Assembly (NCBI GenBank): GCA_035610835.1
Contig: CM069441.1
Location: 103,103,606 to 103,167,605, forward strand
Direction of reading: 5' to 3'
Source: Ophiura sarsii
Lineage: Eukaryota > Echinodermata > Ophiuroidea > Amphilepidida > Ophiuridae
Length of the DNA: 64,000 nt
The position numbers were made by a program, and so were the translations under genes. Below the pieces are notes generated by a model. The model had not been told where the DNA came from. It was given only the letters and a program-made list of their open reading frames with translations, and searched no databases. Positions 27,101-30,100 of the stretch are shown in pieces. How positions within the stretch are numbered: position 1 is the first letter of the stretch; every line of letters begins with the position of its first letter.

Positions 27101-30100
27101 TATAGCTCCTTCACTTCTGGGTGATGTCAAGAACTTTTTGATACCCCCTCGTATATATAAATATAAAAGAGTTGTCTGATGATCGCACAAGCGTGAAACT
27201 CTGAGTAGCAACTACCGTTCCAAATGGTTTAACTGATATATATATAAATGTACATTGTTCTGATTTCAGGGTAGTCGTTATTGGGAACTATGGAGTGGTC
27301 AGCTAATATCAGACAAAGAAGGAAAGTTAATACGAGATCATTGGTACAGGTTACCATCTAGAATCGATGCAGTATACCAAAGGAAGGATGGAAAAACCGT
27401 ATTTTTCAAAGGTAAACACATTCTTAAGTTTTTGTCTGAGCTTAAACTGGTATTTTGAAATGCCATACAAACACCTCCCTATTTGTTGTTGTGGTTTTTG
27501 TGTTGGTGAAAGCAAGCACATAATTTCCTACATTCGATCAAATTACCTGATTCCTAACATGCTTATAAGCACATCAAAGTAGCAAGAACGTACTAGGTTA
27601 TACCGGCAACTCCCACGAGTCGTACAATTTATTTTTCGTTCATCTGGCATTAACTAATGGAAATTGATAATGAAATTGTTGATGAAAGATGTCCATATTA
27701 ACTTCGGCCTGTTATTATGATGAGGATTGATTGATCGACCGCTCATTACATTATACGAAGAGTCATGTCGTGGAAACTCCAGCATAAGTCTTCCAATCTC
27801 GTCCTGATATTGAGATTAGTGCATCAATATTGTTTACCTAAACTCTCTTGATGGGGAAAGATCTCTAATCCGGACTTGATCCTTCTTCCCAAACTAAAAA
27901 AACAGAGGTATTAACCTTCTGCAAAGGCGCTTGAACTGTATCTTCATTGTTTACAAAAGTACATATATTCTGTTTCTTTTCACTGTCTCCACACGCAGGT
28001 ACCAAATATTGGTTGTATTACGGCCAATTTCCCGTCTCAGGTTACCCGAGACCTGTCAAAGAGTTAGGGCTTCCCAATGCCATCGATGCTGCTGTTCCGA
28101 TTGGCTCAAGGAAAACATTTTTCTTCAAGAAGTCGTTGGTATGGCGGTACGATGAAAAGAAGAGGGAAATAGATAAAGGATTTCCGAAGCAGATAAAACA
28201 AGTTTTTCCAGCACTACCAAAGAGAATTCGTATTGCTTTTGCTCATAATGACGGTAAGAATGATATATGATTACTCCAAATAATTGGGGCAGAATTATGT
28301 TGAAGTTATACCAAATACACCACTTGTTATCCGATTTTCTTTAAGACCAGGTGTGTGTTTCATAAATAAAGCTCAAGCTACGGACGTATGATAAGAAGTT
28401 GTTCTTCTAAATCCATCTTCACTTGAAACACATCTTATAGATGCGATGTCGTAGAAAAATGATTTCAATCAACCTATCGTTGGCTTCGAACAGAATTTCA
28501 AACAAATGTCAAAAACAACAACTGTGACTTCGAAGGATGGACTACCATGACTACGAAGGGTACGTGTCATAAGTGACGATACGTCCCAGCGCCTGTGTGT
28601 AATCATAGATCCTTGAGAAGATGGTGCAAATCACGAACCTATTCGAGGGGTCTGAAGGGTTGTACGCACATGTGTTTAAGTATGAACATCAATCGTAAAG
28701 TGACATGCAACGTACAGTGTCGTAGAATCCTTCTAATCTTAGTCTGCGTGACGTTTAGGGCAGTCGTAGACCCTTCGTATTCGTAGAACTGCTTTTACAA
28801 GGAACCATCGTATGCTACGACGCGTACCCTTCGTTAAAAAACGTGTCCATTCCTAGTCCAATCACAGGTGTTATTTAACATGTTTGAGCAAAGAATCTTC
28901 CAGTAACCTATAATGGGTTTTAAGAAACCAATTATTCTACGACATCGTCGTAGCGAAGATGTCTTGTAGAATAAAACTTAAGGTGTTTCGTAGCTTCAGC
29001 TTTTGTGAAATGCACCAAATAAGCAATATCATGTCAACAACTGCAATACAGTGGGAACAAATGGTCCTGTCAAGTTGGAAAAGAATGCTGGTGTTTGACA
29101 ATTACGGTACTCTTGCATAATTCATTCCAATTTCCATTGAATAACTATATAAAGGGTTCAAAAAAAGTAGGTCACCCCCCCCCCCTAAACTTTGATCACG
29201 TTTGTTTGCATAACTGTAGTCACAATTGAACGTTTTGAGAGATTGAAACATTTATGCAAATCAAAAACATTTGTCTACCCATAGAACATTTAGTCCATTT
29301 CAATATCATTATTACTTTTCACAAAATTATGTATCAAAAAAATGGCACTTTTCAAGATTCTATACGAGTTTGTGTGCATAAATCCCCCACAATTAGGCGT
29401 TTTAAGAGATTGAAACATTTGCAAAAAGGGAAAAAAACCTTGGCTACCCACACAAAGTTTCCCCTTTTCAATACCATGTTTGCTTTTCCCAAAACAGTCA
29501 CAAAAGTTTCCCCAAAATGATGTTTTCCGAAAAGTGGCACTTTTTAACGAAGTTATTGACGTGAATGGCTGACACTATTGGCTAGTCATGCATGAAATAA
29601 AATAATTTTCTTTTTTAATTTCAAATAAGGACTAGGGTAGGTGTGGGTAATACGGGACCTTTAAGACATTTGCATAATTAAAATACAAAATAACTGACTC
29701 AAATTTAAGCAAAGTTTGTTATTTGTAATCTACATTTTATAAACCTGTCTTGTAATTAAAAAACAGAGTCATTCTATGTTTGGTTTGGCTGTTATTATCA
29801 AATACTGACGTCATCCTAAATGTCCCATCTTACCTACACGTGAAGGTAATACGGGACATTGTTTTGAGGACATTGTTTTGGTATGAAAAGTTATTTGACA
29901 TTTTTTATTTAAAGAGTAACTGTTAAAAAACCATAAATAATGGTCCACTAATCCATTTAAGAGATAATAATGCATGAAGTACATTGGTACTAAAAAGGTA
30001 CATTGCTGCAAAAAAAGAAAGAAAAAAGTACTGTAGGTGTGGGTAATACGGGACCTTTAAGACATTTGCATACCGTCATGCAGGCTGTCCCATATTACCT

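What the first reader, a model, noticed from the sequence alone, without database searches (positions are those of the whole stretch)
27170..27213. Hammerhead self-cleaving ribozyme inside an MMP intron
All conserved core bases (CTGATGA, GAAA, GTA cleavage triplet) are present, with three stems in the right order. If active, it would cut the MMP pre-mRNA in the intron at 26741-27269, only about 60 bases before the next exon, so it could affect splicing. Minimal stem III forms often need dimers or tertiary contacts, so activity in this context is open.
Basis: partly seen in the sequence, partly recalled or inferred. Interest (0 to 1): 0.75.

Follow-up and report, generated by a model that had tools for sequence, protein, structure and literature searches.

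The report
Transposon-borne hammerhead in MMP intron
The motif is a real hammerhead-type ribozyme sequence, but it most likely reached this echinoderm gene as part of a very common Penelope-like retrotransposon fragment, so it is probably a passenger and not a dedicated regulator of the gene.

Summary
The motif is present exactly as described: 27170-27213 (+), sense to a real MMP intron (26741-27269), predicted cut 62 nt before the 3' splice site. It exceeds chance: a strict type I descriptor finds 2 sites in the window, against 4 in 150 random windows. No Rfam hammerhead model matches. Genome searches explain it. The ribozyme plus ~20 nt is a dispersed repeat (40 of 40 scored candidates match, 1248 first-look), here inside an 11-nt target-site duplication. 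Eight of 30 fetched copies share a further 5' piece; the four translated hold a decayed GIY-YIG-like endonuclease frame. Head-to-head copies and an optional 3' tail also fit a solo pseudo-LTR of a Penelope-like element (PLE), whose minimal hammerheads are known. Its reverse transcriptase was not seen. A duplicated MMP gene ~161 kb away has the same insertion, altered in stem I and loop II. A second hammerhead (3391) belongs to a ~360-bp tandem, retrozyme-like family. Cleavage was not tested; the active fold is not the predicted minimum. An effect on MMP splicing is possible but unsupported. New member of a known kind.

The parts
27170..27213 (+). type I hammerhead motif (HHR2): stem I, CUGAUGA, stem II with U-U at its base, GAAA, 3-bp stem III, GUA, stem I
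   Evidence: core words intact in 27 of 30 fetched genomic copies
27207..27208 (+). predicted cleavage site GUA|GCAACU
   Evidence: by hammerhead rules (recalled), position checked; cleavage itself not tested
27163..27238 (+). dispersed repeat unit, read as a tail-less solo pseudo-LTR of a Penelope-like element (shared core 27170-27234)
   Evidence: own-genome search, copies compared; tail form of ~130 nt
27152..27162 (+). 5' copy of the target-site duplication TATATATAAAT
   Evidence: 8 of 11 solo copies share a word of 8 nt or more across the unit, against 14.5% of 110 mismatched pairs
27239..27249 (+). 3' copy of the target-site duplication TATATATAAAT
26741..27269 (+). MMP intron
   Evidence: GT..AG borders and open frame across the join
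27270..27413 (+). MMP hemopexin-type exon downstream of the motif
26778..27155 (.). separate high-copy palindromic repeat (MITE-like) in the same intron, ending a few nt 5' of the hammerhead unit; not part of it
   Evidence: no match to it in the duplicated MMP intron
3384..3430 (+). second type I hammerhead motif in the window (HHR1)
   Evidence: compensatory differences from HHR2 in one pair each of stems I and II
3210..3472 (+). fragment of a ~360-bp tandem-repeat (retrozyme-like) family that carries HHR1
   Evidence: 96% identity to L067
3076..3207 (-). inverted fragment of the same retrozyme-like family
   Evidence: 93% identity to L067

Best explanation
[quoted passage not shown] It sits in the MMP intron as a short solo pseudo-LTR, inserted with a target-site duplication before a nearby duplication of the MMP gene. 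In an active PLE such a hammerhead is thought to cut element transcripts at GUA|GCAACU. In MMP pre-mRNA it is most likely a passenger: it may cleave slowly or not at all, and splicing normally removes it first. Shown here: motif, repeat family, target-site duplication, linked endonuclease-like frame, shared insertion in the MMP duplicate. Inferred: PLE membership (from structure and linked frame), slow or absent cleavage, no effect on splicing.
For: Dispersed repeat: 40 of 40 scored candidates match window 27157-27269 (1248 first-look), and 40 of 40 match nearly all of a ~130-nt tail form (1732 first-look). Core words intact in 27 of 30 fetched copies (broken in L047, L054, L055; the script printed 26 because L032 was read out of register). 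Judged by eye, the 5' edge is at the stem I 5' strand in 22 of 30, and 8 of 30 continue 5' into a shared piece of up to ~800 bp with variable 5' ends. Translations of four of these eight (L063-L066) show a frameshifted frame with GIY-YIG-like motifs whose last part ends about 85-95 nt before the hammerhead; 24 database relatives aligned are 41-68% identical; the best, P0121, hits 150 of 150 scored places in the own genome at E<=1e-10 (2541 first-look), open frames up to 785 aa. Head-to-head units and an optional 3' tail are PLE hallmarks in PMC3846280 (passages); pseudo-LTR hammerhead, tail and A+T-rich targets in PMC11167929 (passages; section 3 part 1). TSD signal 8 of 11 against 14.5%. The MMP duplicate has the same insertion.
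Against: Pfam GIY-YIG is found in only 2 of 25 aligned sequences (best E 6.3e-4) and in none of three pieces from this genome. A profile search of PDB sequences gives nothing below E 0.62. The fold model (pLDDT 77) has no significant PDB match (best E 0.63), though T4 EndoII, a GIY-YIG nuclease as I recall, ranks third. No reverse transcriptase domain was read, because fetches of longer frames did not complete. No published PLE hammerhead sequence was at hand for direct comparison (the 2014 paper is not held). In 3 of 11 solo copies no TSD of 8 nt or more was found.
Confidence: 0.83

Rival explanations
1. An active intronic ribozyme that tunes MMP pre-mRNA processing: it cuts between the 5' splice site and the branch region, competing with splicing, and is kept in duplicated MMP genes, as proposed for SmPoMuc mucin genes of Schistosoma or for Cpeb3.
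For: Sense orientation, intact core, 62 nt before the 3' splice site, branch-like words TTAAC (27229) and CTGAT (27233, 27260) 3' of the cut; insertion kept in both MMP duplicates. Precedents: putative intronic hammerheads in all SmPoMuc genes (PMC2576457, passages); Cpeb3 (PMC10919898, passages).
Against: It is one copy of a repeat with over a thousand first-look candidates. The MMP duplicate has U to A at the foot of stem I and 12 nt more in loop II. The active fold lies 3.5 kcal/mol above the minimum of the 44-mer, stem III has pairing probability 0-0.03, and stem I falls to 0.15-0.25 in the whole intron. Polymerase needs seconds for 62 nt (recalled rate), while related ribozymes cut at 0.1-0.8 per min or slower (PMC7229834).
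Confidence: 0.08
2. A retrozyme-type hammerhead: part of a small non-autonomous tandem-repeat element that moves through circular RNA.
For: The window's other hammerhead (3391) is of that kind: 356-363-bp spacing at places on four contigs and an array of nearly two units with a 14-nt TSD. Both share core sequence (78% over 51 nt).
Against: HHR2 units are ~75-130 nt; among the listed places only one direct pair lies within 1 kb (C17:6064557 and 6064763), with no regular 200-400-bp spacing; 8 of 30 fetched copies share a 5' piece, endonuclease-like in the four translated.
Confidence: 0.06
3. End of a DNA transposon (TIR of a MITE) that by chance or convergence folds like a hammerhead.
For: Head-to-head inverted copies, TA-rich flanks, and a palindromic MITE-like repeat beside it.
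Against: An inverted second hit was found in 5 of 30 loci, 8 of 30 if tail-only pieces are counted; shared words across the unit are of variable length, 8-12 nt in 8 of 11, not a fixed TA; variable 5' truncation of the extended form and its endonuclease-like frame.
Confidence: 0.03

Closest known systems
Minimal hammerheads of Penelope-like elements (Cervera and de la Pena 2014, not held; described in PMC6155905, PMC7229834, PMC11167929, passages or sections seen)
   Same: Type I order, complete core, very short stem III, no room for a stem I internal loop because the unit begins at stem I; unit lies 3' of a GIY-YIG-like frame; head-to-head copies, optional tail
   Different: Stem III has three pairs here, while PMC6155905 describes PLE motifs as usually lacking helix III; U-U at the base of stem II; in 22 of 30 fetched copies no linked frame
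Non-LTR retrozymes of animals (PMC7229834, parts 1-3 of 6 and passages)
   Same: HHR1 at 3391: type I core, ~360-bp tandem units, TSD; for HHR2 and HHR1 alike, axolotl HHR_Amex2 also has a U-U mismatch at the base of stem II
   Different: HHR2 is not in such a unit; circular RNA not tested
Intronic hammerheads: SmPoMuc genes of Schistosoma mansoni (PMC2576457, passages) and amniote RECK, CTCL, DTNB (reported in PMC6155905, passages)
   Same: Hammerhead in an intron, shared by duplicated genes (SmPoMuc)
   Different: Those of amniotes are described as strongly conserved; here the duplicate copy is altered and the motif is a high-copy repeat

Membership tests
Type I hammerhead ribozyme | conserved core CUGANGA, GAAA, UH before the cut, in type I order | tested here: met
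Type I hammerhead ribozyme | three helices with pairing kept through sequence change | tested here: inconclusive
   HHR1 against HHR2: 2 pairs changed on both sides, 95.8% of cells paired, slid controls at most 45.8%, but 135 of 500 shuffles reach it (two rows only). 37 matches, 20 distinct rows: 96.2% paired, 0 of 500 shuffles reach the covariation score, 50 of 500 reach the number of pair types, one slid control reaches 74.0% paired; the rows are related, fitted to the structure, and include weak readings across inverted junctions (L033, L036, L037).
Type I hammerhead ribozyme | match to an Rfam hammerhead model | tested here: not met
   no hammerhead hit (HHR2; HHR1; 8 of the 60 search loci plus L067 were considered; 8 loci given, L067 among them)
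Type I hammerhead ribozyme | stem I / loop II tertiary contact of canonical forms | tested here: not met
   nothing conserved 5' of stem I in solo copies, so no shared internal loop; fits minimal forms only (inference)
Type I hammerhead ribozyme | self-cleavage | not testable with these tools
   needs in vitro transcription or RNA end mapping
Penelope-like element pseudo-LTR | linked frame with GIY-YIG endonuclease at its C-terminus | tested here: inconclusive
   motifs by eye in 4 of 4 extended copies translated, of 8 found; Pfam GIY-YIG in 2 of 25 sequences, best E 6.3e-4, none in 3 pieces of this genome; no significant PDB match by profile or fold
Penelope-like element pseudo-LTR | telomerase-like reverse transcriptase upstream | not tested
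   fetches of longer frames did not complete
Penelope-like element pseudo-LTR | head-to-head inverted units, optional 3' tail, short TSD, 5' truncation | tested here: met
   hallmarks from PMC3846280 (passages)
Non-LTR retrozyme (for HHR1 at 3391) | hammerhead in ~170-400-bp tandem repeats with TSD | tested here: met
   spacing 356-363 bp at places on C5, C7, C15, C16; L067 holds nearly two units, 99.4% alike over 338 bp, 14-nt TSD read by eye
Non-LTR retrozyme (for HHR1 at 3391) | circular RNA | not testable with these tools
   no RNA data

The most novel reading that the evidence does not exclude
The solo units start at the 5' strand of stem I and not at the cleavage site 38 nt further on, so the inserted copies look as if made from RNA that the hammerhead had not cut. 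The hammerhead fold would then serve this element mainly as a boundary or protein-recognition structure that fixes the 5' end of mobile units, largely independent of cleavage, and would seed introns with complete, dormant ribozymes.
Probability: 0.2. Interest if true: 0.5.

Novelty: new member of a known kind. Interest (0 to 1): 0.3.

Why it matters
It suggests that one echinoderm-like genome carries two hammerhead-bearing mobile families, a PLE-linked unit and a retrozyme-like tandem repeat, each with over a thousand first-look candidates and neither recognised by Rfam models in the loci tested. Single hammerheads found in introns of such genomes should be checked against transposon families before a gene-regulatory role is proposed. 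The uniform 5' edge of the solo units gives a testable point on how PLE hammerheads take part in insertion.

Tried and rejected
Considered and rejected: (1) third hammerhead-like hit at 39147-39200 (16.7 bits, E 0.034): CTGACGA is present, but no paired stem III reaches the would-be cut (read by eye). (2) MMP-specific ribozyme: the motif is a repeat. (3) The MITE-like repeat 26778-27155 as carrier: in 29 other loci its matches to the intron end at or before 27168, a hammerhead word pattern hits only L001, the window's own locus, of these 30 loci, and the MMP duplicate has the hammerhead without it. (4) viral-contig scan with the motif pattern: 0. (5) Rfam: no hammerhead. (6) First covariance model R1 had its structure string out of register; replaced by R2. 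The two window hits of R1 and R2 are the training sequences; only the lack of further convincing hits is informative. (7) Literature: retrozyme + echinoderm, 0 papers; hammerhead ribozyme + sea urchin, 4 papers, none on echinoderm hammerheads by title; this library only. (8) Planned but did not complete: exact genome-wide counts of both motifs (pattern searches, and repeats) and a search for further MMP duplicates with the downstream exon (not repeated).

Full report
What was checked. The motif at 27170-27213 is present letter for letter. It has the type I order: stem I (6 pairs), CUGAUGA, stem II (3 pairs above a U-U mismatch), GAAA, stem III (3 pairs, 3-nt loop), GUA, stem I. The intron 26741-27269 is real: GT-AG borders and an open hemopexin-type frame across the join. 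A 298-aa query joined by hand from exons has as its eight best matches MMPs of echinoderms, the best at 42% identity (Holothuria, Apostichopus), so the host is most likely an echinoderm; its assembly has 1.574 Gb.

Chance. A strict descriptor finds exactly two sites in the window, 27176 and 3391, against four sites in 150 random windows of the same size from a first-order model. A looser pattern expects 0.37. The two sites share 78% over 51 nt and differ in a compensatory way at one pair of stem I and one of stem II; with two rows this alone is not significant (135 of 500 shuffles). Folding energy does not stand out. The hammerhead fold scores -4.2 kcal/mol against a minimum of -7.7 for the 44-mer. 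Stem I pairs have probabilities of 0.52-0.93 in 44- and 71-nt context, 0.44-0.72 in 150 nt and 0.15-0.25 in the whole intron; stem II 0.08-0.33; stem III 0-0.03. These energies leave out tertiary contacts.

Rfam. No hammerhead family matches at gathering score in the window or up to E 10 in 1001 and 121 bases. The same is true for the 3391 motif and, at gathering score, for eight related loci (8 of 67 loci given). Since the 3391 motif sits in a retrozyme-like tandem unit (below), the models appear blind to this kind; the miss is not decisive.

What it is. A search of the host genome with 27157-27269 gave matches for 40 of 40 scored candidates (1248 first-look; 52 rows in all), these 40 at 87-100% identity. 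Thirty loci were fetched. The shared unit begins at the 5' strand of stem I and runs through the hammerhead to ...GGTTTAAC; flanks differ. Core words are intact in 27 of 30 (broken: L047, L054, L055). A longer form with a tail ending TTTACCAGTA makes ~130 nt; 40 of 40 scored candidates match nearly all of it (1732 first-look). Target-site duplications are visible: in 11 solo copies (of 30; dropped: eight 5'-extended, eight with another unit or its tail upstream, L032, and L041 and L055 as near-duplicates of L040 and L054) 8 share a word of 8 nt or more across the unit, against 14.5% of 110 mismatched pairs. In the window the repeat is TATATATAAAT at 27152-27162 and 27239-27249.

Link to a Penelope-like element. 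Eight of 30 copies (L034, L044, L047, L048, L052, L053, L056, L059) share a further upstream piece of up to ~800 bp with variable 5' ends; in L048 the reported ~127-bp match is inverted and I count it also for its immediate flank. I translated four of these eight (L063-L066, holding L044, L052, L053, L034): each has a decayed, frameshifted frame with parts of IIYSAEI...YIGLTE..FKLRYYNHMQ and a conserved cysteine-containing end that stops about 85-95 nt before the hammerhead. A piece of it finds 125 proteins at E<=0.001 among 153 candidates; the 120 listed are unnamed or hypothetical. Pfam sees GIY-YIG in 2 of 25 aligned sequences, not in three pieces from this genome; a profile against PDB gives nothing below E 0.62; the fold model gives no significant match. 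The name GIY-YIG therefore rests mainly on motifs read by eye. The best relative, P0121, hits 150 of 150 scored places in the genome (2541 first-look), with open frames up to 785 aa, and one of them (C16:56057628-56058143) ends 85 bases before the unit of L056. Head-to-head inverted units, optional tail, short TSDs, 5' truncation and solo pseudo-LTRs are described for PLEs in PMC3846280 (passages); C-terminal GIY-YIG, pseudo-LTR hammerhead, A+T-rich targets and internal start of reverse transcription in PMC11167929 (passages; section 3 part 1 of 2). PMC6155905 (passages) states that all available PLE sequences carry hammerhead motifs, usually minimal. The reverse transcriptase itself was not seen, because the genome server stopped answering.

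Age and conservation. A second MMP gene lies about 161 kb upstream (L032, L061, L062); aligned pieces longer than 240 bp that follow the gene order are 90-98% identical. Its intron holds the same unit at the same place with the same TSD (read by eye), so the insertion is older than the gene duplication. That copy has U to A next to CUGAUGA (foot of stem I) and 12 nt more in loop II; core words are intact. The window copy equals the commonest sequence over the 44-nt motif among the fetched copies. The separate palindromic repeat at 26778-27155 has no match in the duplicate intron and is not linked to the motif in 29 other loci.

How it most likely works. Shown: sequence, family, TSD, linked frame. 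Inferred: in a PLE transcript the hammerhead cuts at GUA|GCAACU. In the anole PLE the hammerhead cut only with protein present, and core mutants did not change insertion in vitro (PMC11167929). Related animal hammerheads cut at about 0.8 per min (coral) and 0.1 per min (mussel), and an axolotl form with the same U-U at stem II reached 22% in one hour (all PMC7229834). With 62 nt to the splice site the polymerase passes in seconds (recalled), so a slow ribozyme competes with splicing only late. For comparison, Cpeb3 leaves 9931 nt and cuts with a half-life of 2-3 min (PMC10919898, passages). I put the chance of some cleavage in vitro at about 0.6 and of a measurable effect on MMP RNA at about 0.1; both are judgement.

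The second hammerhead. The 3391 motif is in a family with places 356-363 bp apart on C5, C7, C15 and C16 (40 of 40 scored candidates match, 1281 first-look). L067 holds nearly two units, 99.4% alike over 338 bp at an offset of 360, between GATGTATGTGTGTA repeats (TSD read by eye). This fits the non-LTR retrozymes of PMC7229834 (parts 1-3 of 6 and passages seen). No paper in the library holds both words retrozyme and echinoderm; other words or papers not held could cover it.

Verdict. A real hammerhead-type sequence, correctly placed, but most likely a transposon passenger of a known kind. The open points are cleavage, the reverse transcriptase of the parent element, and why solo units start at stem I and not at the cut.

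Noticed in passing
window 3076-3472: Second hammerhead in a rearranged copy of a ~360-bp tandem-repeat, retrozyme-like family, high copy in this genome.
   Followed up: partly
window 26778-27155: High-copy palindromic repeat in the MMP intron (full-length copies mostly 90-95% identical; its 3' part 96-99%); terminal CCCCCTCGTA resembles mariner-like ends (recalled).
   Followed up: partly
L061/L062 (C1:102964500-102984300): Closely similar MMP gene about 161 kb upstream, a fairly recent duplicate.
   Followed up: partly
window 13409-13689, 16680-17062, 21352-21781, 25613-26014: Related 20-bp minisatellite arrays (ACATCGTTTATGTTTAATGC-like), in and around the MMP gene; those at 21352 and 25613 have counterparts in the MMP duplicate.
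   Followed up: no
window 50460-52563: Three stretches 938 bp apart with the same translated frame (50460-50687, 51398-51625, 52336-52563), a tandem duplication inside what looks like a chaperonin (CCT/TCP-1) gene on the minus strand (gene name recalled).
   Followed up: no
window 26210-26266 and 26432-26488: 89% identical 57-bp direct repeat at an MMP exon end, a possible partial exon duplication.
   Followed up: no
window 25026-25140 and 25496-25610: 115-bp inverted repeat, 89% complementary, next to a minisatellite.
   Followed up: no
L039 729-802 (-): tRNA match (57.7 bits) about 600 bp from a place where a divergent hammerhead match (39.7 bits) stands directly upstream of the PLE-type unit.
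   Followed up: no
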